30,389 bases of DNA from Funneliformis mosseae (Eukaryota > Glomeromycota > Glomeromycetes > Glomerales > Glomeraceae). Made by a program: the position numbers and the translations under genes. The notes under the pieces were generated by a model. It ran no database searches. It was not told the DNA's origin and saw only the letters and a list, made by a program, of their open reading frames with translations. The stretch is taken from NCBI GenBank assembly GCA_910592005.1, contig CAJVPP010000536.1:1-30389 (forward strand), read 5' to 3'. Shown here in pieces: positions 44 to 30,190 of this stretch (the stretch's first letter is position 1; each line of letters opens with the position of its first letter).

Positions 44-142
44 GTAATACAAAAAACTCCCGATTTTAAGCACCACCCAAAGATTTTATCCGATTTTCCC
101 TTCAAAAATGTGGTGCTTAAAATCGGGAGAATACGGTAATAC
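44..142. repeat. Perfect 20-bp inverted repeat (small MITE-like hairpin) with 7-bp flanking direct repeats
   Basis: The arm CTCCCGATTTTAAGCACCAC (57-76) is the exact reverse complement of 110-129, with a 33-nt loop. The hexamer-plus-one GTAATAC occurs immediately outside on both sides (44-50 and 136-142) in direct orientation, as a target-site duplication would. The arms are more GC-rich than the surroundings. It looks like a miniature inverted-repeat element or two abutting transposon ends. The family is not identified. Confidence 0.7.
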
Positions 143-2945: not shown

Positions 2946-3089
2946 GTATAGTGTGTTTCATTAAAAATTATTAAGTCATTTATATATATTTCAAATTTTA
3001 AAAATTCATATAATCATGTGATAAATACAATACTAATTTGTGATTGGCTAAAAATTTAATCACATGACAAATATAATCCAATAAAATCT

Positions 3090-10052: not shown

Positions 10053-10394
10053 ATGAAGCCACTTATCCTAAAAACCTGTAATATAATTATCTATGATAAA
10101 AATTATGAACAATCTAGTTATATTATTGTTAAAAAATTCAGGTATAATAAAATGACCATTTATAATATTCTTAAATACTTTCATAAAATTAGTACTTTTA
10201 TACCAAAAAAATAAGCTAATTACCTACCACTTCTTAATATATCAACTTAATAAGAGCTTAAACTTTTTGTTTAAAAAATTGCTAAAAACTGTTGACTTTG
10301 TTTAGTAAAACTTACAACAGTTTGGACAGTTCATATGAATAAACCTATTTCTGAATTACTATATATCATAAACTTATATTGGTCGAAATAGTTC
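10053..10394 (+). pseudogene. Tc1-like transposase, N-terminal DNA-binding fragment
   Basis: From ATG at 10053 one frame runs about 113 codons with only a few stops. It reads NIIIYDKNYEQSSYIIVKKF, then RYNKMTIYNILKYFHKISTF and IPKK*ANYLPLLNIST, which is the bipartite HTH of Tc1/mariner transposases. The GRP-like linker is altered to ANYLP. LTTVWTVHMNKPIS is the start of the region before the catalytic domain. The frame then dissolves into the repeats at 10440, and no DDE motif follows. It is a truncated, mutated remnant; the family call rests on the helix-turn-helix pattern only. Confidence 0.5.
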
Positions 10395-10439
10395 AAATTG
10401 ACTAAAAATTGGATGGTCAATTTTAGGCTAATTTTAATA

Positions 10440-10862
10440 CTATTTACAGCTAATTGGCTATATTTTCTGATCAGCACAAATAGGTGCTGATAGATGCTGA
10501 TCAACCCCAATCATACATGGCTATTCAACATCAATTTAGAACTTAAATTTAACCATAAATCAGTTTAAAATTAGTCTCAATTTGATAACAATTCAAACGT
10601 TGATAAATACTAATCAATTCTAATCAGATATAGTCATCTAGCATCAATTTAGAACTTAAATAATCATAAATCAGCCTAAAATTAATCTCAATTCAGCAAC
10701 AATTTAGATGCTGATAGATTCCTATCAACTCTAATCAGATAAGTAATTTAACCATAAATTAGCCTAAAATTAACCTTAATTTAGTATCAATTCAGCAACA
10801 ATTTAGATGCTGATCAATGCCAATCGACTTTAATTAGATAAGTAATTCAGCATCAATAATCG
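10440..10862. repeat. ~100-113 bp tandem repeat, four diverged copies
   Basis: The landmark CAAC/TTCTAATCAGAT recurs at about 10502, 10615, 10726 and 10825. Each unit carries CATAAATCAGCCTAAAATTA, an AATTCAGCAACAATTTAGAT-like stretch, GCTGATC and TAGCATCAATTTAGAACTTAA. A related sequence in the opposite orientation (GATTTAGGCTGATTT context) lies at 25780-25985. Confidence 0.75.
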
Positions 10863-10959
10863 ATACATTTTATTTATTAAATTTATTAAATATTAAAATT
10901 TTATTAATAAAAATATAATATAAATTTGCAAAAATATAACAAAATATCACTAAAATCTA

Positions 10960-11575
10960 CTAATTAATTTTCTATTAAAAATAGAATAAAATAATAAAAT
11001 AACACATTTCTTCTAAAATCCCCTAAAATCATCCTAAATATAGATAAATAAATAATATATGATAAAATATGATTTATTCTTTCTGAAATTGCCTAAAAAT
11101 ATAAAAATAATAAATATAAAATGTAAAAAATAGAAGAATTAACCTAAAATTATCCTAAAAAGTAAAAATAATAATAAAATAATAAAAAATTCAACCTGTT
11201 CCAATCAAAATCATCTAAAAAAAATGTAAAAATAATAAAATCGACTTATTCTTACTCCAAATAGCCCAAAATTATAAATATAATAATAAATTAATAAAAA
11301 ATTGACTTGTTCTTACTTCAAATTACCTAAAAAAATGTAAAGATAATAATAAAATAATAAAAATTAACCTGTTTTTACTCTAAATTACCTAAAAAAAATG
11401 TAAAATAATAATAAAATTGATCTATTCTCACACTGAATCAAAAGATAATTAATAAAATCGATCCACTTCTACTCTAAATCACCTGAAATAAATATAAAAA
11501 TAATAATAAATTGACTTATTTTTACCTTAAAGCATCTGAAAAATCGACCTGCTTCTACCCTAAATCATTCAAAAA
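10960..11575. repeat. A-rich tandem repeat with 35-62 bp spacing
   Basis: A degenerate unit, CCTGTTTTTACTCTAAATTA followed by CCTAAAAAAAATGTAAA and AATAATAATAAAAT, recurs at about 11197, 11245, 11307, 11369, 11421, 11463, 11515 and 11550. The strand is strongly A-rich. No coding potential was seen. Confidence 0.65.
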
Positions 11576-13299: not shown

Positions 13300-14541
13300 A
13301 ATCCTTTTACTGTTGCACAAAATTGATTATCTCTTTTTTTAATTTTTGTAGATCATTTTGACATATTATTTTTAAGTGTAATAATATTAGTATATGAATT
13401 TTTACCTCTCCTATAAATCTTCATTTTTCTTACTAAATTTCTTGTTTATTTTAGCAAAAAATCAGTTTTTTTTCAAGAGATCAGAATTTTGTCGCTCTAA
13501 TTTTTAATTCTCTTAATAAATTTGACAAGTTTTTCTTAATTCTCTATGTAAGAATAAAGAAAATATATTGTTAATTATAAAATAATAAATGTAAATAAAT
13601 CAAAAATAATATACTTGATTCTAAATTATCTAAATCATTAAAAATCTTAAATTTAGCTACAGCTGAAGTACTTGTTGTTGGTTATCATTGAAATTTCAAT
13701 AGAAGTCAAATTTTCTCATATCATTTTTGTATTTCTCCTAAATTTACGTCTATAATTTAAAAAGTTATTTAGTATTAATATAAAAATAGTATATTATGAC
13801 TAACTTATACTTTAAAATAATCAGCTTATCCTTAAACAATATTATATAAACACATTTTTATCTTTTTTCTATTATAGAAAAGCAAAAAATCAGTTTATTG
13901 TTTAAAAAATTAGCTAGTTAATTGATAAAATTTAACTTACACTTTTAAGTTCTTCATCAGTTGATTTTTTTTATTAGGAGCATGTTGTTAGTGTTATTTA
14001 AAACTGAGATTCTATTATAAAAATTAAAAAATCAGTTTATTATTTAAAAAATTGACTGGTTGATTAATAAAATTCAACTTATATTCTGGCTTTTCATCAG
14101 CTGATTTTTTTCATTATAAGCATTTTGTTAATATTATTTGCAACTGAGATTCTATTTTAAAAATTAAAAAAATTGGTTATTATTTAAAAAAATTGACTGG
14201 TTGATTGATAAAATTCAACTTATATTCTAGCTCTTCATCAGCAGATTTTTTTATTAGAGGTATTTTATTGGTATTATTTGCGACTGAGATTTTATTATAG
14301 AAATTAAAAAAATCAGTTATTATTTAAAAAATTGACTGGTTGATTGATAAAATTTAACTTATGTTTCAGCTCTTCATTGGTTAATTTTTTTTATTAGAAA
14401 TGTTTTGATGATATTGCTAATAACTGAAATTCTATTATAAAAAAGTAAAAAAATCAGTTTATCATTTAAAAAATTAGCTAGTTAATTAATAAAATTTAAC
14501 TTATGTTCTTTTTGTTCTTGTAATAATTTTTTGGTTAGCAT
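13300..14541 (-). pseudogene. Spliced coiled-coil gene remnant with a tandemly repeated exon
   Basis: The first readable exon gives NTTKMLTKKLLQEQKEHK (ATG at 14541). It is followed by four or five 141-bp units, each with a copy related to ISVANNTNKIPLIKKSADEE then LEYK. An exon at 13615-13749 reads VNLGEIQK*YEKI*LLLKFQ then **PTTSTSAVAKFKIFNDLD. A canonical 71-bp intron follows (13544-13614, donor GTATAT). The next exon is strongly coiled-coil: KTCQIY*EN*KLERQNSDLL, KKN*FFAKINKKFSKKNEDL, *ER*KFIY. Most stops are at Trp or Gln sites. No family was recognised; gag-like or nuclear coiled-coil proteins are possible. The start region and its upstream 200 bp are duplicated at 19545-19745. The gene may continue into 12870-11577. 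Confidence 0.45.
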
Positions 14542-18904: not shown

Positions 18905-19575
18905 AATTATATATTTATAATTAAAAAAATCAGTTTATTTTTTTATTATTTTTTGAGAAATTGACTAAAATTCAACTTAAGTTTTGTCTGATTTTAATAA
19001 TTAAAGGCATATTTTTATTATAAAAAATAAAAAAATCAGTTTATTACTTTGAAAAATTGATTAAAATTCAACTTAAATTTCATTTAATTTTAATAGTTAA
19101 AAACATATTTCTATTATAAAAGTAAAAAGAATCAGTTTATTTTTTGTTTATTTTTTTAAAAAATTAATTTAAGTTTTATCTGATTTTGATAGTTAGAGAC
19201 ATATGTTTCTATTATAAAAAGTAAAAAAAATCAGTTTACTTTTATATATTTTTTGAAAAATTGACTAAAATTCAACTTAAGTTTCAATTGATTTTGATAG
19301 CTAGAGGTAGTGATGTATATTTTTGATATCCCAGAGATTTGTTATCCTAGCTATATATCCTAGCTATATGTCTCAATCTGTCCCATACTATATTCTAAAT
19401 GTTCTATCTGTTCCATCTATATCCTATCAGTATCCTATCAGTGTTCCATTAATGTCTCATGACAATACTAGCTGAAGGTATATTTTTATATAGAAAATAA
19501 AAAAAATAGTTTATTTTTTGTTTATTTTTAAAAAATTAATTAAAATTTAACTAAGTTCTTTTTGTTCTTGGGACA
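18905..19575. repeat. ~100-bp tandem repeat related to the 13.9 kb array
   Basis: AATCAGTTTA recurs at 18931, 19037, 19133 and 19232 and again, altered, at about 19507 after an inserted repeat (19307-19479). Minus-strand units carry AAACTGATTTTTTT, TTTTTATAATAG, a short exon-like piece (YVSNYQNQIKLK in one unit) and AAGTTGAATTTTAGTCAATT. The intron half matches the 141-bp array; the exon half is shorter. Confidence 0.65.
19307..19479. repeat. Dispersed repeat, copy 2, inserted in the ~100-bp array
   Basis: It runs from GGTAGTGATGTATATTTTTG through AGATTTGTTATCCTAG, AGCTATATGTCTCAATCTGT and TTCTATCTGTTCCATCTATA to GCTGAAGGTA. It matches 8294-8448, with an extra TAGCTATATATCC duplication. It interrupts a repeat unit between TAGAGG and TATTTTTATATAG, and GGTA occurs at both edges, suggesting insertion with a short duplication. 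Confidence 0.65.
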
Positions 19576-19750
19576 ATTTTTTTAGTATTTTGGTAACATA
19601 TAAAAAGAAAAAATTTGAAATGATTGTAAAAAGATAAAGTTTGAGTTAAAATTATTTTTTAAAAAGTGAAAAAATTAAGCTTATTTGTATAAATATTCCT
19701 AATTTATCAGAAATAAACTTAAATAGTATATTAAATCAATATTAATAAAA
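19576..19750 (-). promoter_or_regulatory. Duplicated leader/start of the repeated-exon gene, second copy
   Basis: The minus strand matches 14500-14745: TTTATACAAATAAGC, AATTTTAACTCAAACTTTAT, then a start exon ending LSQEQKEL (compare LLQEQKEH at 14.5 kb). Homology fades beyond about 19745, where the first copy also stops matching. Confidence 0.45.
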
Positions 19751-19837
19751 GCATCCTTTTAATTTATCAAGTTCTTCAAATATTCAATATTATTTTAACA
19801 AATCAGTTTAATCTAAAAATTCAGTCTTTTAAAATAA

Positions 19838-20553
19838 TAAAACTATTATATCTAAGGAATAATAATATTATTATACTTAAAGAATGATAATAACATAATA
19901 CTTAAGCAATAATAATATTATTATTTCTTTAAAACGATAAAACTATTATACCTAAGAAATGATAAAATATTCTACCTAATATATAAATAAAACTATTATT
20001 TCTTAGATATAATAAAATATTGTACTTAAGAAATGATAAATGCATTATATTTAAGAAATAATAATACTATTATGCCTAAGAAATGATAAATATATTATAT
20101 ATGGTAATATCATTCTTTAGACATAATAATACTATTATACCTTAGGAACAATAAAAATATCATACTTTAGGAATTATAATACTATCATTTCTTTAAAATG
20201 ATAAAATATAATATCTAAGGTATAATAAAACCATTATTCTTTAGGTATAATAAAACATTGTAACTAAGAAATGATAAATATATTATACATGGTAACATTG
20301 TATCTTATGTATAATAAATGCATTATATTTAAGAAATAATAAAAAATATCATTTCTTAGAAATAATAATACTATTGTATCTTAGAAATGATAATACAATT
20401 GTATTTAAGAATTAATAAATGCATTGTATATGGTAATATCATTTTTTAGACATAATAATATTATTGTATCTTAAAAATAATAAAAATATTATACTTTAAG
20501 AACGATAATACTATTATATCTTAAAAAGATAAAACTATTATATTTAAGGAATA
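19838..20553. repeat. Satellite A: ~20-25 bp palindrome-rich array
   Basis: The unit TATTATACCTAAGAAATGAT followed by AAAAC recurs about thirty times with spacing of roughly 20-25 bp and transition differences. Some units appear in opposite orientation (ATCATTTCTTAGGTATAATA). The same family continues at 20727-20787 after an inserted MITE, and recurs at 23101-23172 and 25444-25775. Confidence 0.75.
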
Positions 20554-20724
20554 CAATTAACTCTTATTATAACGAACTCTATGTCTTAGACCTCAACTTC
20601 ACTATAAGGTTATAGTGAAGATTTTAAAAGATTTGATTGGCCAATTTGCTATAACAAGAGTATTTTTATTATATTTGTTTAAAAATTTGTTATATCAAGA
20701 GTTCACTATATCAAGAGTTGACTG
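20554..20724. mobile_element. 171-bp MITE with pogo/mariner-like TIRs and TA duplication
   Basis: The left end CAATTAACTCTTATTATAAC and the reverse complement of the right end CAGTCAACTCTTGATATAGT agree over 26 bp at 20 positions, mismatches mostly transitions. TA flanks both sides (20552-20553 and 20725-20726). In the middle is a near-perfect 11-bp hairpin CTTCACTATAAGG/TTATAGTGAAG (20597-20620). It interrupts satellite A. No coding capacity. Confidence 0.6.
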
Positions 20725-20787
20725 TAATAAATATATTATATCTAATATACAATGATAATATTATTTCTTAAGTACAATTAGAAATGT

Positions 20788-21255
20788 TAAAATCCAGTTT
20801 AGTTCTGAAACTTCCAGTTCTAAAAAGAATCTAGTCTATAGGATTGGATTTTAAGAATAGGTCCTGAGACTGCAGTCTTAAGATTGTAATCCTATAGAAA
20901 TTAAGACTTACAATCTTAAGATTACGATTTTATAGAAATTAGAACTTGTGATCTTAAAACTGCAGTCTTATAATTAGAACTTATGATTCTAAAACTTAAT
21001 CCTATATAATTAGGATTTGTAATCTTTAAATTACAATCTTATAGAAAATAATCATTTAAGAAGAATGATATATCATTTGACTTAAATTATAAAAGAAATA
21101 ATTATTCAAGATGAATTATTGACTTGAATGATAAAAGAAATAATCGTTAAGAAGAATAATAAAAAATTATTTGACTTGAATGATTATTTTTTTATAAAAC
21201 TGCAATCTTAAGACTATAGTTTTAGAACTGTAAATCCTAATTTTTATATAATTGC
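20788..21255. repeat. Satellite B (AAGACTGCAGTCTT family), interrupted by an inverted block of the 50-bp satellite
   Basis: Self-complementary words recur: GACTGCAGTCTTAAGATTG, CAATCTTAAGATTACG, ATCCTATAGAAATTAAGACT. At 21045-21190 it is split by a block of AAGAAGAATGAT/TTGACTTGAATGAT units. That block is bounded by AAAATAATCATTTAAG and, in inverse orientation, CTTGAATGATTATTTT (15 of 16 complementary). B resumes at 21191. Confidence 0.7.
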
Positions 21256-21445
21256 AGTTAATACTCTAAATGGTTCAGTTTGATCTAAATTATAAGCCAA
21301 TCTGAAACTGAACCAAAAATTTTGTTTAGTTCAGTTCAGATTATAAATCTTAAAAATGTTAATTCAAAACTGAACTGAATCGTAAATTGGTAAAAATCTG
21401 AACTGAACTGAAAATTTCAGATTAATCTAAAAGTTTAGTTTGATA
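21256..21445. repeat. Satellite C, left arm (CTGAAC/GTTCAG family)
   Basis: Repeated AATCTGAACTGAACTGAAAA, GTTTAGTTCAGTTCAGATTA and CAGATTAATCT words, mostly palindromic. The B-to-C junction TGCAGTTAATACTCTAAATG then GTTCAG is the inverse of the C-to-B junction near 22960-22985 (20 of 26 positions). Confidence 0.7.
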
Positions 21446-21469
21446 TATTCAAATCTTGAAGGAAACCTA

Positions 21470-21885
21470 ATGTGTAATTCTCTAAAGAGTTTTGCAATTA
21501 TTCCACAATTCCTTTGAAATTTCGCAAGTAATTTGTGATTCTCTTAAAATTTCACAATTACTTTATGATTTCCTTAAAGTTTCGCAAGTAATTTGCAATT
21601 CTCTTAAAGTTTTACAATTACTTTATGATTTTCTTTTAAGTTTCGCAAGTATTTTATACTTCTCTTAGAGTTTTACAATTACTTTGCGATTCCTCTTGGA
21701 GTTTTGCAAGTAATTTGCGATTCTCTTAAGAGTTTTGCAATTATTTTATGATTTTTTTAAAGTTTCGCAAGTAATTTATGATTCTCTTAGAATTTCGCAA
21801 TTACTTTGCGATTTTTTTTAGAGTTTCACAAGTAATTTGTGATTCTCTTAAGAGTTTTGCAATTACTTTACAATTCTCCTTATTG
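21470..21885. repeat. Satellite E: 30-bp unit with CGCAAGTAATTTGCG hairpins
   Basis: Two alternating 30-bp units, TTCTCTTAAAGTTTCGCAAG then TAATTTGCGA, and TTCTCTTAAAGTTTTGCAAT then TACTTTGCGA, repeat about fourteen times. The cores CGCAAgtaatTTGCG and TCGCAAttactTTGCGA are inverted repeats. The array is richer in CG dinucleotides than its surroundings. Confidence 0.8.
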
Positions 21886-22803
21886 TTTTAAATGAATGAT
21901 AAGAAAATAGTTCAAATAAAGGGATTGAAGTTATCATTCTAAAAGAACAATAAAAAATCATTCAATTGGAATGATTAAATTATCATTCTAAAAGAACGAT
22001 AAAAATTCATTCAATTAGAATAATTAAATTATCATTTTAAAAGAATGATAAAAGGATAGTTTGATTAAAATGATTAAATTATTGTTCTAAATGAACAATA
22101 AAAGAATTTTTCATTTAAAATAATTGAATTATCATTCTAAATAAACAATAAAAAAATCGTTCAATTAGAATAATGAAATTATCATTCAAAACAAATGATA
22201 AAAAAATCATTCAATTGAAATGATTGAAATTATCATTCCAAAAGAATAATAAAAGAATCATTCATTTAGAATGATTAAAGTTATCATTCTAAATGAATGA
22301 TAAGAAAATCATTTGATTGGAATGATAAAAGTTATCATTTCAAACGAATGATAAGAAAATTATTTAATTATAATGATTAAATTATCATTTTAAAAGAATG
22401 ATAAAAGGATCGTTTAATTGGAATGATTAAATTATCATTCCAAAAGAACAATAAAAGGATTGTTCAATTAGAACAATTAAATTATCATTCTAAAAAAATG
22501 ATAAAAGGATTATTTGATTAGAACAATTAAATTATCATTCTAAAAGGATAATAAAAAAATCGTTCAATTAGAACAATTGAAATTATCATTCCAAACAAAT
22601 GATAAAAGAATCGTTTGATTGAAATGATTAAATTATTGTTCTAAAAGAATAATAAAAGTATCATTCATTTGAAATAATTGAAGTTATCATTCCAAATAAA
22701 TGATAAGAAAATTGTTTGATTGAAACAATTAAATTATCATTCCAAAAGAATGATAAAAGGATTGTTTAATTAAAACAATAAAAGAATTGTTCAATTAGAA
22801 TGA
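21886..22803. repeat. Satellite F: 49-50 bp unit of two back-to-back hairpins
   Basis: TTATCATTCT-type landmarks are at 21931, 21980, 22029, 22079 and 22129, giving 49-50 bp spacing and about eighteen copies. Each unit contains ATCATTCTAAAAGAATGAT and AATCGTTCAATTAGAACGAT, both self-complementary. The architecture and words match the 50-bp satellite at 29092-29690. Confidence 0.85.
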
Positions 22804-23172
22804 TCTAAAATTTCAGATTAATTCAAAATTTTCAGTTCAAATTAGATTTATAATCTGAAAATATCTGAACTGAACCAAAATTTTTGGATTAAATTTTTTG
22901 CAATCCAAAATTAAACTGAAATTGATCTGAACCGAAAATTTTCAGATTAATCTGAATCATTCAGAGTCTTAGCTACAGTTTTAAGACTGCAAGTTCTAAT
23001 TTCTATAGAACTGTAATCTTAGAACTGCAGTCTTATAATTCAAAAGACTTTAAACTAGATCAGACTTCATAGAATTATTTAAGACTTAATTCTATAGGAC
23101 TTTTTAATATTTCTAAGTATAATAAATGCATTATACCTAAGGAATGATAAAACTATAATTTTTTAAAAATGA
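22804..23172. repeat. Mirrored right flank of the satellite nest: C, then B, then A
   Basis: 22804-22965 repeats the CTGAAC/CAGATTAATCTGA family. 22966-23100 repeats the AAGACTGCAAGTTCTAATTT / GAACTGCAGTCTTAT family. 23101-23172 repeats ATACCTAAGGAATGATAAAA. The order A-B-C on the left is repeated as C-B-A here with junctions in inverse orientation. Confidence 0.7.
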
Positions 23173-23411
23173 TTAGGGTATCTAGGAATATATGATACAA
23201 ATATATATGTATATTTTAAGATTTTTTCACATATATTATGTATCATATATTTTATAAAAAATCACATAAAATATGCATACACATATTCTACAATAAATAT
23301 AATTGGTTAATCATAATCGTTAATCATAATCATAAATCTAATTATGAAAAATATTGTCAATCATCATCGCTTTTTTTTATAATGGTAATAGCAATCGAAA
23401 GGATTAATTTT
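23173..23411. other. Spacer with a perfect 12-bp inverted repeat
   Basis: ATATATGATACA (23188-23199) is exactly complementary to TGTATCATATAT (23239-23250). It lies between the satellite nest and the hAT remnant and may belong to the 5' end of that element. No gene seen. Confidence 0.45.
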
Positions 23412-25290
23412 ATGCAAAAATATAAAGATAACTACTATATTAGTAGTGCTATAATATTTTATAAATTTTGTAATATAACGATTAATCATAAAAATAAATC
23501 AAAAGTTGATTAACATTTGAGAACAAATAAATATAAAAATTACAAAACTTCAATAAAATAAAGAAATAATATATCATAATAACAATCCACACTTGAAACC
23601 TTTAAACATACATTTTCTGAGAGAGATAAACTTAATTTAGAATTAGTTAAAGCCTTTATCGCAGCTGATATTTCATTAGAAAAAGTTAATAAATTAAGAT
23701 CTTTTTTTTATAAATTTTGTAAAAATAATATGTTTTATTATTGATTATTAATTTTTTTTTATTTTATTATCATTATTAATTATTTATTATAATTTTATTA
23801 GGTGGAACAATTGTGGGTGCTAATCAACTATGTGAAAAATTTTTATCAAAGTCTATAATTAAGAAATTGAAAAATTAAATATGTTATTAAAAAATAAAAA
23901 AATATGTATTATAGTAAATAAAACTACTAATACTTGTAAAAAGGCAGCAATTAATGTAATTTTTACTTTTAAAAACTAAATAAAATTAGTTGCTACAGAA
24001 TATGTTATTATAGCAAATAATATAACAATATCATAAATAATTTTATTTTCACTTTAAAAATATCAAATTTCTTTTGATAATATATTACTTATTATCACTG
24101 ATAATGACAGTTATATGATCAAAACATTTAAAAATTTATCATCAATTATGTCACAAATGAAACATAACAATTGTCTTGCACATATTATGAATTTAGTTGG
24201 AGAATGTTAGATAGATTTTCTTTTTTTCAACTTCTTAATACCATTACTTCAAATATTAAAAGTAGTTTTATTCATAATTCAGCAAGAAAAAGAATATAGA
24301 TTAACTATCTTTCTACAATGCTGTTAATAATCCTTCTTTACCTCCCTTTTTTAAAATTCTAGTAAAAAATTCTAATTTTAATATTACCTTACTACTATTA
24401 TAAATAAAAATTAGTGTAGTTAGTTTAGATTTGTATTTTGGCTTAGTGATTATATTCCATATATTATACCATTTTTTATTAAAGAAGAAAAATTGGATAA
24501 TAATAGTAAAGCAGTTTGTGATTTAGCAAAGATATTTTAAGATTTAATAGCAGTTTTTAATTTTGAAATTATGGCTCTTTTTATTAAATTTAATTTAAAC
24601 CAATAAATGAATTTTTAAATTAATTATTAAATTATATAACATTAAATTAAATTATTAATTAACTTTATTTTATTTAGTTTTATTTCTGATTTGGAATTTT
24701 TTAAATTAGAAATAAATCTTTAGCAGCTTTTATTGCCAATTGTGTGAACTAAACTTAAGCTATATTAGAATATAATGTAAATGATCTGCTAATTTCATCA
24801 GAAATAATTACAAATGTAATTATAATAATATTGATCCTTTGGAATTTAAACCTCATTTTAAACAAATATATTAAATTGCATTAAACAAATAAAATAAGTA
24901 TATTTAACATCATTCAGCATTACCTTTATTTAGAGATATTTAATGTTTTGATCACTGGTTTATTCATTCATAAATTAATAGACAAAATATTTTATTATAT
25001 ACTAATATAATTAAATTTTAAAATTCTATAAATGTTTTATAAGATGAATGAAGTATTTAAGTAGATTAAAAGAAGTAAATGAAGAAGGAGAATTGGATTT
25101 AAATAAATATTAGAAAGAAAAAAGTTTATTATTACCCAAATTTATCAAAAATAACATTGATTTATATTTGGTTACCAGTAGTTGGAGTAAATATAGAGTG
25201 CAGTTTTTCTAATTATAATATTTTAAGTGAAAGAAGAATGCATCTTCTGAAAAATCTATTTCAATACTTAATTTTTTATATTATAATAAA
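23412..25290 (+). pseudogene. hAT-superfamily transposase, degenerate
   Basis: ATG at 23412 leads into a decayed zinc-finger-like start (FYKFCNITINHKNKSKVD*H then LRTNKYKN). STLETFKHTFSERDKLNLEL and VKAFIAADISLEKVNKLR follow. The catalytic start, normally VDETTDNC, reads VNKTTNTC (about 23905-23935). TDNDSYMIKTFKNLSS, MKHNNCLAHIMNLVGEC*ID, SSFIHNSARKRI*INYLST and HHSALPLFRDI*CFDHWFIH continue the core. The C-terminal hAT dimerisation motif is IYIWLPVVGVNIECSFSNYN then ILSERR. The family and order of blocks are clear. Trp codons are stops at GEC*ID, RI*INYL and NKY*KEK; Gln sites are TAA. Probable introns lie near 23705-23800 and 24610-24678. Several frameshifts. Not functional. Confidence 0.8.
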
Positions 25291-25443
25291 AATAAATAAA
25301 TTGATTTTTTTTTGCGAATCATTTTTACTTTAATAATTTTACCTAAAATTTAAAAATTTAAACATAATTTTTACTAGAATTATGAACATATATTATCACA
25401 TATTTTATTTATTAACACATATATATTTTGAGATTTATCATTA

Positions 25444-25775
25444 CATATTTTTGGATACCTTAAAAATGATAATAATATTATATTTTAAATACGATAAAAT
25501 ATTATATATTAGGAATAATAAAATATTATATTTAAGAAATAATAAATGCATTATATCTGAGAAATAATAATACTATTAGACTTTAAAAATAATAAAACAT
25601 CGTACTTTAAGAAATAATAAAAATATTGTACTTAAGGAATGATAATATTATCAGACTTTAAGAATAATAAAACATTGTACTTTAAGAAATAATAAAAATA
25701 TTGTACTTAAGAAATAATAATAATATTATATCTAAATAACAATAATATGATTGTATCTTTAGAATGATAATATTG
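25444..25775. repeat. Satellite A, third locus
   Basis: Units such as TATTATATTTAAGAAATAAT and TTGTACTTAAGGAATGATAA recur with roughly 20-27 bp spacing, in the same family as 19838-20553. A longer sub-unit of about 65 bp (ATCAGACTTTAAGAATAATA / ACATTGTACTTTAAGAAATA) is visible at 25580-25710. Confidence 0.7.
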
Positions 25776-25985
25776 TTCTAATCAGATGTCAATCAGCTAT
25801 AAATAAGATAGATCAAATTATAGCTGATTTTTAATGTATATCAATTAACTATAAGTATAAAATTGACTATAAATAAGATAGATTAAATTTTAGTTGATTA
25901 TTGACTGATTTTTGATAATTTACCAATTTTAGATTGATTTAGGCTGATTTTTCACATATCTGATTTTTTTGATTTTGACTAGTAA
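25776..25985. repeat. Short field related to the 10.4-10.9 kb repeat, inverse orientation
   Basis: Words such as TCAATCAGCTATAAATAAGA, AATTATAGCTGATTTTTAAT, TAGATTGATTTAGGCTGATT and CACATATCTGAT correspond, reverse-complemented, to AAATCAGCCTAAAATTAATC and ATCAGATATAGTC of 10440-10862. Copies are few and diverged. Confidence 0.45.
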
Positions 25986-26346
25986 AAGTTATTCTATTTA
26001 TATAAAATTAATTTATTATAATAACTATTTTCTATAAATTAAATAAAATATATTTAATAAAATAAAATAATAATGTAAAATAAATAATAAATATAATAAA
26101 AGTAATAAAAATAATAAAAACAATAAGATAAATTAAAAGAATTATATAACTAAAGAAATTTTAAATATTATAAACTTTAGTAAAAATAATAAGTTATATA
26201 GAATTTATAAAATAAATAATTACTGTTAATCATTATTATTAGATATAGTTGATAAATCCTTCAATATGAGATCATCATTGATTAACAAATCCTACATAAT
26301 ATTAAATAATATGTTAATTTTTTTTTTATTAACAATTTATATAATA
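25986..26346. other. AT-rich spacer
   Basis: AAT/AAAT microsatellite at about 26040-26130. A minus-strand stretch LLINDDLILKDLSTISNNND (about 26295-26235) looks protein-like but has no recognisable family. No gene is called. Confidence 0.4.
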
Positions 26347-27612
26347 CAGTAATGGTTATAAGTATTTGACCGCCCCAAATTATCCAAAATTATTATATAA
26401 CTACCCCTTAAATTTTTCAGAAATATAATATAACACAATACATGATCACCTGTAAATTTATAAGTATCAATAATACAAAAAAAAAATTTAGATGATCATC
26501 AAACTTTCGCTTGAAAAAATGGAACTCTCTTTAGAGAAATGATATGAAATTATCTTTTTACGTGAACACTCAGCTGGTCCAAAGTTTAGTTTTAGATTTA
26601 TTGCTAAACAGGTACGTTGTAGTAAATCTACAGCTATTTATTGAGTTAAAAGATATTATGAAAATTGGGATTTAAGTACTTTAAAAAGACCAGAGCGGCC
26701 TTGTGTAATATCTGCAAAACAAGATGATAAGATTGTAAGATGGCAAAGAAAGAACATAATATAACAGCCATTCAAATACAAGAAAAAATGGAAGAAAGAG
26801 GTATTGAGCTTAGTGTAGAAACAGTAAGGTGACGTCTTCGTAAGTCTGAAAGAAAGTTAAGTAATGAAATTTCTAAACCTTTACTTAAAGAAGACCATCG
26901 AAAGAAAAGGTTGCAATAGGTAAAAAAACATAAGAATTTTGATTGGAATCAATTTATTTTTACAGATAAGAGTACATTTCAATTATATACATCAAAAAAA
27001 AGGTTTGGCAGTTTCCTGGTAGAAAAAAGTGTTTCGTTCTGTTAAGCATTCACCAAAAGTCCATATTTAGGAATGTTTTTTTGCTTTTGGATTTGGTAAG
27101 CTATTTTGCTTTCAGAGGAATCTTAATGCTGAATTTATATATACTATTTATGAGAAGGGTCTTCTGGCTTCCACCTCTAAATTTTTTGGTGAAGATAACA
27201 TAGATTGGATCTTGCAAAAAGATAATGATCCAAAGCATCAATTAAAAATCACGAAAAAATAGAAGGAAGAAAATGTCATTGAGATACTTTTTTGGCCATC
27301 AATGTCTCCAGATCAAAACTCTATAGAAAATGTTTGGAGGTTAATAAAAATTAATATACAAAAAAAAAATTTGATTAATTAGAGGGTTAAAGGGAGAACT
27401 TACAAAAGAATGGAACTGATTATCATCTTTACTTATCGCGAATTTGGTAACTAGCATGAAAAGATGTATAGCTGCACTTATAGAGTTAGATAATGACTAC
27501 ATAATGTATTAATTTTAGTTAGTTGGTTATGTATTTTTTAAATAAAAAAAATTGTGAATTTACTTACTTGTAGCCAGAGTTAGAGGCAGTCGGATACTTA
27601 TAACCACTACTG
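26347..27612 (+). mobile_element. Tc1/mariner element with readable TIRs and TA target duplication
   Basis: The left end CAGTAATGGTTATAAGTAT followed by TTGAC and the inverse of the right end CAGTAGTGGTTATAAGTAT followed by CCGAC agree at 21 of 24 positions. TA dinucleotides flank both ends (26345-26346 and 27613-27614), the expected target duplication. Length is 1266 bp, normal for a single-gene Tc1/mariner transposon. It carries one degenerate transposase gene (26492-27512). The right end abuts a LINE remnant. Confidence 0.9.
26492..27512 (+). pseudogene. Tc1/mariner transposase (DD34E), degenerate
   Basis: The ATG at 26492 opens IIKLSLEKMELSLEK* and then YEIIFLREHSAGPKFSFRFI AKQVRCSKSTAIY, the first HTH. 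The linker LKRPERPCVISAKQDDKIV and EKMEERGIELSVETVR*RLR form the second HTH. The catalytic triad is still readable: FIFTDKSTFQLYT (first Asp; the usual TDES is TDKS), KDNDPKH (Asp codon at 27221) and PSMSPDQNSIENVW (Glu codon at 27326). Exactly 34 residues separate the last two, so DD34E. Stops replace Trp/Arg at EK*YE, IY*VKR, VR*RLR and Trp at LQ*VKKH. Frameshifts occur near 26755 and 27005. The C-terminus MKRCIAALIELDNDYIMY ends at 27512. Once about 340 residues; now inactive. Confidence 0.9.
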
Positions 27613-27616
27613 TACT

Positions 27617-28857
27617 ATGTTAATAAAATGGAAACTTAATGTACGCCTCAATTCTTTTATAATATTAGCATATATAGATGATACATTATGGATCACTGAA
27701 TCTAAATAATAACTCAACAAAATTATAAATATTGCTAACAGTTTTTATGACCTAAATAGCATTAAAGTGAATTGATCAAAATCAGATCTGTTGATTAACA
27801 TAAATATAATCCAAACTATCCAAACATATGTTAATAGTTCTATACATATGATTACTACCACTAGTCTTAAAAATTCAATTAGATACTTAGAGGTCTAGAT
27901 CTCGCTCAAATGTAATAAGATGTTTATTATCAAATAAACTGTCTAGGACGTAAAGTTCCCAGTGGCCACTTTGTTTACCAAAAAACTGACAGATAAACAA
28001 CTTATATACACGTTTAATATTGTTATAATACCTTATATTAAGTATTGTACACAACTGACTCACTTATCAAAAACACTTGCAGATTACATTATATGACCCT
28101 TCAGAACTTTACTAAAGAAAAAACTCTGTCTATCACGAGATACGCACTCTTGTCTCCTTCACTCAAAACTCTTTTATAAAGTAACGCATCTTTATCATAA
28201 GCACATGCAAGTCTTCAATGATGCCTTACTGATGTCTTTAAATAATACTGATCTATTAGGTTTATCCACTGATATATGGCTGCTATAACTGCAAGTTAAG
28301 AAATGGTTATCTACCACTACTTGAATGGTCTCACAAAAACTCAAAGTATTTTAATAACTGGATTTCAGCACTTTTATGTGATCTTAAATGCTTTAACATT
28401 AACTTATCCCTATCAGAATAATTTACTTATAGACTACAAGGTAGATTCATTACTATTCAGTCAATTATTCCATAAGACTACATGAAATTAGCCTTCTATT
28501 TGTTCAAATATTCCCTAATATTTGTGAAACAATTAGTTAGCTGAGATGAAAGATCATTATATACTGCTAAAAATCTGAGATATCTGTTATCAATCCCTAG
28601 AAAAAGACCATCTTTAAAATAATACCTCAAGGCTAAAAGTGTACTCAATGTTGACAAGCTCAACTCCTTGCTTGTAACTACAACATACTGATAAAGTATT
28701 ATTTATAGATTCCTAATGCTACCCTACAAGACAAAATAATAGTCCACTCATTTATCACATATTGGGATTGCAACGCTAATATAATGATAATAGGTTGTAT
28801 TCTAAAGATAGCAGGCAGTTTTGCTAATGTCATCCATTATACATATATCCACTCTTA
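27617..28857 (+). pseudogene. LINE (non-LTR) reverse transcriptase, 3' part, degenerate
   Basis: The frame begins inside the palm domain: FIILAYIDDTLWITES, a YIDD active-site box (27668 onward). Then IINIANSFYDLNSIKVN*SK matches the region after the box in fungal LINE polymerases. The thumb/connection follows in one frame with few stops: LTDKQLIYTFNIVIIPYIKY, TQLTHLSKTLADYII*PFRT, LLKKKLCLSRDTHSCLLHSK, HLYHKHMQVFNDALLMSLNN, TDLLGLSTDIWLL. Shifted frames continue with NWISALLCDLKCFNINLSLS, ERSLYTAKNLRYLLSIPRKR and LKAKSVLNVDKLNSLLVTTT. The last block, THLSHIGIAT / IMIIGCILKIAGSFANVIHY, precedes an RNase H domain in related proteins. The N-terminal endonuclease and fingers are missing: the left limit is the mariner insertion. 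The right part is cut by a satellite nest. Confidence 0.75.
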
Positions 28858-28861
28858 GAAT

Positions 28862-29035
28862 TCTGAATGAGTCGAGTCAAGTCAAGTTTAAAGATCAACT
28901 CTATTTGACTCTCTTTTTTCAAGTTGAGTCAAGTCAAATTTATTTTATAGAATCTTTCAATTTGATTTGATTTGAGTTATATAAATTTTAAACTCAACTC
29001 AATTTGAATCAACTCGATTTTACTCAATTCAATTT
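28862..29035. repeat. Satellite G, left arm (GAGTCAAGTC / GACTTGACTC family)
   Basis: GAGTCGAGTCAAGTCAAGTT, AAGTTGAGTCAAGTCAAATT, ACTCAACTCAATTTGAATCA and AACTCGATTTTACTCAATTC are tandem self-complementary words. The family reappears inverted at 29691-29850. A G-run (TTGGGGAGGGGGGAAAAG, about 29069-29086), unusual in this AT-rich window, marks the boundary with the inner array. Confidence 0.7.
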
Positions 29036-29091
29036 TGAAAAAAAATAATAAAAAAAAAATGAAAAGATTGGGGAGGGGGGAAAAGAGCGAA

Positions 29092-29690
29092 TGATTTGTT
29101 ATCGTTCAAGTTGAACAATTAAGATCATCGTTCAAGTCAAATAATTCATCATTGTTTTTCTTAAACAATAAAAAAAATCATTCAAGTTAAATGATTTGTT
29201 ATCGTTCTTCTTGAACAATAAAAAAAATTGTTCAAGTCAAACAATTCATCATTGTTCTTCTTAAACGATAAAAAAAATTGTTCAAGTCAAACGATTCATC
29301 ATTGTTCTTCTTAAATGATAAAAAAAATTATTCAAGTTGAACGATTCGTCATCATTCTTCTTGACCACTTTTTGGGTATAATTTGGAAAGCAAAAAATAT
29401 GAGAGTTTACGCCACCCCTTTATGGCTTAAAAAAATATCATTCAAGTTAAACAATTTATCATCATTTTTCTTGAACGATAAAAAAATCATTCAAGTTAAA
29501 CGATTCATCGTCGTTCTTCTTGAACGATAAAAAAAATCATTCAAGTCGAACGATTTGTTATTGTTCTTCTTGAACGATAAAAAAAATTGTTCAAGTTGAA
29601 CAATTTGTCATCATTCTTCTTGAACAATAAAAAAATCGTTCAAGTTAAACTATTTGTTATTATTCTTCTTGAACAATAAAAAAAATCATT
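29092..29690. repeat. 50-bp palindromic satellite (same family as satellite F), about eleven copies
   Basis: The ACRATAAAAAAA landmark falls at 29165, 29215, 29265 and 29315, an exact 50-bp period. Each unit holds AATCGTTCAAGTTGAACGAT and ATCGTTCTTCTTGAACGAT, two hairpins separated by CGTC and an A-run. One unit is interrupted by about 70 unique bases (29363-29432) containing TTTACGCCACCCCTTTATGG, probably a transposon-end fragment. Confidence 0.9.
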
Positions 29691-29850
29691 TAAGTCAACT
29701 TGAGTCAACTCGAATCAAGTTGAGTTAAATATTTAATTTAACTTGAATTTGACTTGACTCACAAATCATCGAATCAAAAAAATATAAACTTGACTCAATT
29801 TAAATTTGACTTAGCTTATCTGACTCGTGAGTTAACTCAACTCGTCTGAA
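29691..29850. repeat. Satellite G, right arm (inverse of the left arm)
   Basis: AAGTCAACTTGAGTCAACTC, CGAATCAAGTTGAGTTAAAT, ACTTGAATTTGACTTGACTC and GACTCGTGAGTTAACTCAAC repeat the same family as 28862-29035. The outer edge CAACTCGTCTGAAACTCT is roughly complementary to AGAATTCTGAATGAGTCGAG at the left edge, so the nest is an imperfect inverted repeat about 1 kb long. Confidence 0.7.
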
Positions 29851-29854
29851 ACTC

Positions 29855-30190
29855 TATCTACTCTACTGAGATAAGTCTGCATCAATATGATGGGTATTCA
29901 CTCAATAGGCCTACATTATTTAAGAGTAACTCTCCCAATCTTAAGAAATACAATTGTATAGTAATTATGTCCTTCAGTCTCTATGTGAAAATAGTACTCA
30001 AGGATACCTGAAAGTAATATATCAGCGCATTATTATTAATACTTATGAAGGATATTATATCTTACATTTTTAACTGTTTTTATAATAGTTTTTTCCAGTT
30101 ATCCCTGATTGATTTTTGCCACCCTGCACCTTCTACATTAATATCAAAGTTTATTATGTTACTATATAGTCACATCCTACTAACTCATTT
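29855..30190 (+). pseudogene. LINE remnant, continuation after the satellite nest
   Basis: Reading resumes with EISLHQYDGYSLNRPTLFKS, NSPNLKKYNCIVIMSFSLYV and later LSLIDFCHPAPSTLISKFIM. Composition (more C than surrounding repeats) is like the LINE part at 27617-28857. No RNase H motif could be proven. The link to the LINE is inferred from position and base use. Confidence 0.4.

What the first reader, a model, noticed from the sequence alone, without database searches (positions are those of the whole stretch)
19838..23172. Russian-doll nest of palindromic satellites with mirrored flanks (A-B-C-[E-F]-C-B-A)
Five different tandem repeats, each built from short self-complementary words, follow one another. 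The order on the left (A, B, C) is mirrored on the right (C, B, A). Junctions are in inverse orientation: the B-C junction at about 21250-21275 is complementary to the C-B junction at about 22960-22985 at 20 of 26 positions. Within B, a further block (21045-21190) is itself bounded by a 15/16 complementary pair. This is direct from the sequence. One explanation is serial insertion of hairpin-forming arrays into each other; another is a single foldback element with very long composite terminal repeats that later expanded. I know of no named element of this form.
Basis: partly seen in the sequence, partly recalled or inferred. Interest (0 to 1): 0.78.

Follow-up and report, generated by a model that had tools for sequence, protein, structure and literature searches.

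The report
Nested transposons with palindromic minisatellite cores
The mirrored pattern is best read as several families of jumping genes inserted one inside another; the unusual part is that families with unrelated ends carry related arrays of a small palindromic repeat in their middles.

Summary
Copies elsewhere in the same 82-Mb genome show that the layers are separate dispersed elements nested by ordinary transposition. C-[E-F]-C (21259-22971) is a hAT-type element: 8-bp target duplications agree at 7 or 8 positions in 19 of 24 paired copies, against 0 of 552 cross-pairs; its core varies in length. B (20779-23115) is a second hAT-type family (8 of 13 pairs; 0 of 156 cross-pairs). C sits in B's right arm. 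B sits in A, a 25-bp array that is the core of a larger, tentatively CACTA-like element. A third hAT element (23174-25462, perfect 8-bp duplication) and a TA-flanked 171-bp MITE also interrupt A. So A-B-C...C-B-A is mirrored because each layer was split, and the inverse C junctions are terminal inverted repeats. Nesting does not explain one thing: the cores of A, B and C share a 25-bp palindromic design and related sequence, beyond shuffled and random palindromic controls, although their ends are unrelated. Cores may pass between families by nesting followed by loss of arms; that is not shown.

The parts
10380..11002 (+). 5' end and outer 5' arm of an A element (CACTA-like ends, tentative); whether it is the mate of the 3' end at 25992 is not shown
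   Evidence: blastn to copy C808, 70%; terminus compared
19532..19831 (+). inner 5' arm of the A element
   Evidence: 19532-20527 matches C808 1434-2494, 69%
19832..20551 (+). A core, 25-bp palindromic array, left piece
   Evidence: TRF; 191 matches in own genome
20554..20724 (+). 171-bp MITE flanked by TA (20552-20553 and 20725-20726), inverted ends 21/30; pogo-like by recall
20725..20770 (+). A core, piece between the MITE and B
   Evidence: 20725-20778 matches C808 core
20771..20778 (+). target-site duplication of B, AGTACAAT (7/8 to the other copy)
20779..21044 (+). B element, left arm, starts TAGAAATGTTAAAA
21045..21190 (+). D, core of B
   Evidence: TRF; arrays of 48-54 bp at this place in other B copies
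21191..21250 (+). B element, right arm, first piece
   Evidence: joined flanks align across the junction in other B copies
21251..21258 (+). target-site duplication of C, ATTGCAGT (5/8 to the other copy, the three differences all transitions)
21259..21462 (+). C element, left arm, starts TAATACTCTAAATGGTTCAG
21468..21870 (+). E array (30/61 bp), part of the core of C
   Evidence: next to a C arm on 16 of 16 other contigs examined
21889..22804 (+). F array (25/50 bp), part of the core of C
   Evidence: F-type arrays between C arms in other copies
22805..22971 (+). C element, right arm
22972..22979 (+). target-site duplication of C, GCTACAGT
22980..23115 (+). B element, right arm, second piece, ends ATATTTCTA
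23116..23123 (+). target-site duplication of B, AGTATAAT
23124..23165 (+). A core, piece between B and the third hAT element
23166..23173 (+). target-site duplication of the third hAT element, AAAATGAT
23174..25462 (+). third hAT element, inverted ends 19/30 (TAGGGTATC / TAAGGTATC)
25103..25333 (+). remnant of a hAT dimerisation domain inside the third hAT element
   Evidence: PF05699, E 4.3e-05, 23.7 bits, cut-off 21.4
25463..25470 (+). target-site duplication of the third hAT element, AAAATGAT (8/8)
25471..25770 (+). A core, right piece
25771..25992 (+). A element, 3' arm and 3' end
   Evidence: 69 matches in own genome

Best explanation
The nest is serial cut-and-paste insertion of non-autonomous DNA transposons. 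An A element was there first (CACTA-like by its ends, tentative). B, a TA-flanked MITE and a third hAT element inserted into A's 25-bp array, and C inserted into B's right arm. Each hAT insertion left an 8-bp target-site duplication, so each older layer reads as two halves around the younger one. Shown here: termini, duplications, inverted ends, and uninterrupted B and A copies elsewhere. Inferred: that hAT transposases made elsewhere moved B and C in trans by binding short repeated words in the arms, and that the cores change length by slippage or unequal exchange.
For: C family: 24 end pairs in 63 sequences; 10 perfect and 19 at least 7/8 duplications, 0 of 552 cross-pairs at least 7/8, no perfect duplication at any other length from 4 to 12. 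B family: 13 end pairs in 31 sequences; 5 perfect and 8 at least 7/8, 0 of 156 cross-pairs. Third hAT element: perfect 8-bp duplication and a hAT domain remnant. Flanks of C, joined, align across the junction by at least 15 bases on each side in 22 of 25 matching loci, about 19 distinct copies as three contigs were fetched twice. Flanks of B joined align across the junction in A copies L091-L094 and L098. Inverted C ends 24/30. C arms hold CTGAA/TTCAG 21 times, shuffle mean 1.6, maximum 5 of 200. The C end pattern occurs 678 times in the genome against 1 for the reversed pattern. hAT dimerisation domains: 150 of 150 scored candidates (357 in all), 0 of 14 control genomes.
Against: The window's own C duplication is only 5/8; 8.7% of random 8-mer pairs of the window reach 5/8, though only 0.3% do so with all differences transitions. 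C is the younger insertion by nesting yet has the worse duplication (5/8) than B (7/8). Not every paired copy shows a duplication: C L037 and L040 2/8, L041 5/8, L095 6/8; B L063 0/8, L065 2/8, L070 and L074 3/8, L087 6/8, some of these perhaps from wrongly placed ends. No transposase gene bounded by C or B ends was found. A's 3-bp duplication is absent in the window (1/3). In the B-in-A test, 14 of the 19 spanning loci were fetched for C, E or B, not as A copies, and were not checked one by one.
Confidence: 0.93

Rival explanations
1. A single foldback element whose long composite terminal repeats are A-B-C, later expanded.
For: The order is mirrored and inverse matches exist between the two sides.
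Against: B and C occur elsewhere with separate termini and separate duplications; B copies without C exist; the arrays lie inside the elements and the terminal repeats are short.
Confidence: 0.03
2. An assembly artefact: arrays of different loci joined by a wrong overlap.
For: Repeats of this kind break assemblies; several matching arrays lie at contig ends (for example C560, C311, C4142, C2501). No reads were available.
Against: The joints fall at the termini of known families and carry 8-bp duplications, which wrong joins would not make.
Confidence: 0.03
3. On the shared cores: the arrays of A, B and C arose separately and converged, because hairpin-prone 25-bp palindromes amplify easily or because one host or transposase protein binds the same word.
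For: E, in the same element as F, is also built on a palindromic word but is not related to the A, B or G units. F folds strongly as a single strand, z -6.6.
Against: A-C and B-C unit scores were reached by 0 of 1200 shuffles and 1 of 1200 random palindromic units of the same design, so design alone does not explain the likeness; selection for one binding word could. The other arrays fold less strongly (E z -1.8, A -2.2, 29-kb array -2.5).
Confidence: 0.4

Closest known systems
Non-autonomous hAT elements and hAT MITEs (Mar, PMC3517528: search listing and start of abstract; short BuT2 copies, PMC3942097: passages)
   Same: 8-bp target-site duplications, short inverted ends, no coding capacity, many dispersed copies
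   Different: Here most of the length is a tandem array of palindromic units of variable length, and arms are full of short words in both orientations
CMITE families of corals (PMC2872659: passages)
   Same: Families with different terminal repeats share an internal region better conserved than the ends
   Different: All CMITEs use TTAA and are piggyBac-related, and the shared part is about 75 bp; here the shared part is an array and the families seem to belong to two superfamilies
Foldback elements: Tetris (PMC4079207: passages) and Galileo (search listing)
   Same: DNA transposons with internally repetitive parts that can feed satellite arrays
   Different: There the tandem repeats lie within long terminal inverted repeats; here they are central
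Helitron or MITE elements with central tandem repeats (review PMC6947457: passages)
   Same: Transposable element whose middle is a tandem array
   Different: Other superfamilies; a core shared between families with unrelated ends is not mentioned in the passages seen

Membership tests
hAT superfamily (non-autonomous), C | 8-bp target-site duplication | tested here: met
   19 of 24 end pairs at least 7/8, 0 of 552 cross-pairs; the window copy is 5/8
hAT superfamily (non-autonomous), C | short inverted ends beginning YARNG (consensus recalled) | tested here: met
   family ends TAATG / TAAAG; the window copy has TAATA / TAAGA, one transition off at the last base
hAT superfamily (non-autonomous), C | subterminal repeats bound by the transposase | tested here: inconclusive
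   CTGAA/TTCAG 21 times against shuffle mean 1.6; binding not testable here
hAT superfamily (non-autonomous), C | autonomous partner with the same ends | tested here: inconclusive
   two widely spaced end pairs looked at (L095, L099), neither held one; hAT domains are common in the genome
hAT superfamily (non-autonomous), B | 8-bp target-site duplication | tested here: met
   8 of 13 end pairs at least 7/8, 0 of 156 cross-pairs
hAT superfamily (non-autonomous), B | short inverted ends beginning YARNG (consensus recalled) | tested here: met
   family ends TAGGG on both sides; window copy TAGAA, 14/20 between its ends
hAT superfamily, third element 23174-25462 | 8-bp duplication, hAT ends and hAT transposase | tested here: met
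   AAAATGAT twice, TAGGG / TAAGG, degenerate PF05699; one copy only
CACTA / EnSpm (CMC), A | ends CACTA or CACTG with 3-bp duplication (recalled) | tested here: inconclusive
   by eye: (C/T)A(C/T)TRGTC ends; 3-bp duplication in 4 of 6 copies with both ends (C1685, C39, C1133, C3245), not in C808 or the window; the length was chosen after 8 and 9 bp failed
CACTA / EnSpm (CMC), A | CMC transposase | not tested
   no search made
Foldback element | long terminal inverted repeats made of tandem repeats | tested here: not met
   arrays are central, termini lie in short ends of separate families
Tc1/mariner-pogo MITE, 20554-20724 | TA duplication and inverted ends | tested here: met
   TA on both sides, ends 21/30; family copies not searched

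The most novel reading that the evidence does not exclude
One palindromic minisatellite module circulates among unrelated DNA transposon families of this genome: an element with the module inserts into another, the inner element's arms decay or are lost, and the outer element keeps and spreads the module. The nest in the window would be an early stage of such a capture, and A, whose array adjoins a stretch resembling the inner arm of C, a finished one.
Probability: 0.35. Interest if true: 0.62.

Novelty: new variant of a known kind. Interest (0 to 1): 0.4.

Why it matters
It turns an apparently new kind of composite hairpin element into a readable insertion history, with termini that let B and C copies (and, less certainly, A) be annotated across an AT-rich genome. 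If the shared core is a captured module, these families would be a natural test of how satellite-like arrays move between transposons of different superfamilies, and of whether such arrays help transposition or merely ride along.

Tried and rejected
Foldback reading: rejected, see rivals. A ending at 23172: rejected, A-element homology returns at 25469-25992. Widely spaced C ends as autonomous elements: rejected for the two looked at. L095 (5.2 kb) is a C element whose left arm is split by about 4.3 kb of other DNA; in L099 the nearest pair encloses only 654 bp, and an ORF between the wider ends resembles a retroelement integrase by eye. 8- and 9-bp duplications for A: tried by eye first without a consistent match. 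A first duplication script for C used a short end pattern and mispaired internal words such as GATTAATC; it was replaced with longer patterns, and its counts are not used. Likeness of A's arm-core junction to the inner arm of C: among 50-base windows it ranks first in five of five A copies (0 of 300 shuffles each for these five and the window, letters shuffled singly); with core words cut from the C reference it ranks first in four and second in one (mean scores 25.1-31.2), but background windows of the same contig reach 28.4 and a B copy (L062) 29.1. So it is only suggestive. Host identity: an Rfam 18S search failed four times; 'like arbuscular mycorrhizal fungi' is recall from protein fragments. 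Rfam at gathering scores and ARAGORN on the window: nothing. Pfam on six fragments: one hit. Paper searches; in those listings I saw no paper on this nest or on a core shared across superfamilies, but I saw titles, starts of abstracts and, for seven papers, passages only.

Full report
Setting. GC is 17-30% per kb; no ORF of 100 aa or more with ATG, GTG or TTG start is present. It looks eukaryotic. A likeness to arbuscular mycorrhizal fungi is recall only; the 18S search did not complete.

Observation. TRF finds the A, D, E and F arrays; B and C are not tandem arrays. Inverse similarity between the left and right B and C stretches is real. The quoted 20/26 pair is misplaced: 6/26 at the stated coordinates, 21/26 at 21264-21289 / 22941-22966. 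The D boundary pair is 15/16.

C is an element. A search with the right-hand C and B stretch together (22805-23113) gave 64 matches from 40 scored of 555 candidates; apart from the window itself the long ones end at query positions 152 to 188, that is around the end of C at 167. Aligned copies have fixed ends, TAATGCTCTGAAC on the left and GAGCTTTA on the right, with unrelated DNA outside. In 63 sequences 24 end pairs were found; the 8-base flanks agree at 7 or 8 positions in 19 (10 perfect), against 0 of 552 cross-pairs (4 reach 6, 34 reach 5), and no other length from 4 to 12 gives a perfect duplication. The five that fall short are the window copy and L041 (5/8), L037 and L040 (2/8) and L095 (6/8). 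Between the arms lies F, or E with or without F. E adjoins a C arm on 16 of 16 other contigs examined; these come from the 30 loci cut out of 88 matches. The end pattern occurs 678 times in the genome, its reversed control once.

B is an element. Its ends are TAGGGATGTTAAAA on both sides. Of 13 end pairs in 31 sequences, 5 have perfect and 8 at least 7/8 duplications; 0 of 156 cross-pairs do (7 reach 6); L063, L065, L070, L074 and L087 fall short. D lies where other B copies hold arrays of 48-54 bp. Joined flanks of C align across the junction in 22 of 25 matching loci, about 19 distinct copies.

A is the core of an element. A loci show a 5' arm, the array and a 3' arm. In the window the matching pieces are spread over 10.4-26.0 kb, with one arm piece present twice (14.5-14.7 and 19.5-19.7 kb), so one element or two cannot be told. 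Ends like CACTGGTC with 3-bp duplications in 4 of 6 copies, not in the window or C808, suggest CACTA; the length was chosen after 8 and 9 had failed (by eye). Joined flanks of B align across the junction in the A copies L091-L094 and L098; the other 14 of 19 spanning loci had been fetched for C, E or B and were not checked one by one.

Further insertions. The third hAT element (23174-25462) has a perfect 8-bp duplication, inverted ends 19/30 and a degenerate hAT domain. A 171-bp MITE flanked by TA lies at 20554-20724, ends 21/30. Outside the finding, G (28856-29856) has inverted ends 20/30 and a 7/8 duplication; 40 of 499 candidates were scored, 39 of them other places at 89-94% identity.

Shared cores. 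The word pair GAAYGAT-N6-12-ATCRTTC occurs at 3016 places against 13 for the reversed pattern. By autocorrelation, periods of 25 and/or 50 lead in A, F and the G array; E has 61 and 30, and the short D has 68 and 47. The words GAACGAT, GAATGAT and GAACAAT with their complements number 40 in F (shuffle mean 1.4), 26 in the G array (1.0), 17 and 14 in two A copies (0.45, 0.42), but 4 in the window's decayed A (0.15, maximum 2), 3 in D (0.25, maximum 2) and 0 in E. Unit consensuses were compared with circular alignment. A against two C units scores 48 and 47; two B units against two C units 42, 39, 38 and 28: in these six comparisons 0 of 1200 dinucleotide shuffles and 1 of 1200 random palindromic units of the same design did as well. 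A-B (28, 29): 0 of 400 shuffles, 1 of 400 random units. B-G (55, 52): none of 800. Against: A-G (16) was reached by 33 and 41 of 200, C-G (20, 22) by 24, 29, 5 and 3 of 200. E is not related to A, B or G, and only weakly similar to C (score 22; 0 and 1 of 200 shuffles, 17 and 3 of 200 random units). Units came from one A copy, two B copies, two C copies and the window for G, so this is a sample. Relatedness is thus supported for A-C, B-C, A-B and B-G, not for A-G or C-G. A piece like the inner arm of C at A's arm-core junction is suggestive only.

How it works. hAT insertion duplicates 8 bp (PMC3942097, passages), and subterminal repeats matter to a hAT transposase (PMC4763223, passages); the C arms carry CTGAA/TTCAG 21 times against a shuffle mean of 1.6. 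I infer movement in trans, array growth by slippage, and decay afterwards: differences within C duplications are 15 transitions and 2 transversions in pairs with at least 5/8, and CpG observed/expected is 0.42 in the window against 0.84 in the fetched loci taken together. Methylation of CpG at transposons is reported for Rhizophagus irregularis (PMC8647823, passages); whether this organism is a relative is not known.

Verdict. The nest is ordinary in mechanism and well documented. The likeness of cores between families with unrelated ends is the part worth following.

Noticed in passing
window 28856-29856: A further hAT-type element (G): ends TAGAATTC / TAGAGTTT, 8-bp duplication TCCACTCT / TCTACTCT (7/8), arms of GTCAA-type words, core array 29093-29695 related to B cores; other copies are 89-94% identical, so it looks younger.
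   Followed up: partly
window 59-127: A perfect 18-base inverted repeat (59-76 and 110-127, CCCGATTTTAAGCACCAC) read directly from the sequence; perhaps the end of a small element.
   Followed up: no
window 13867-14509 and 18946-19238: Arrays of 140 bp and 96 bp that match the 5' arm of A elements, so the arm of A is itself repetitive; one arm piece is present twice in the window.
   Followed up: partly
window, whole: CpG observed/expected 0.42 against 0.84 in the fetched loci taken together, as if this stretch were old or long methylated.
   Followed up: no
L095 (C80:32100-37900): A C element whose left arm is split by about 4.3 kb of DNA with several ORFs, one of 233 codons; the insert was not identified.
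   Followed up: partly
window 26500-27500: Pieces that by eye resemble a Tc1/mariner transposase with stops; Pfam gave no family for the two fragments tried.
   Followed up: partly
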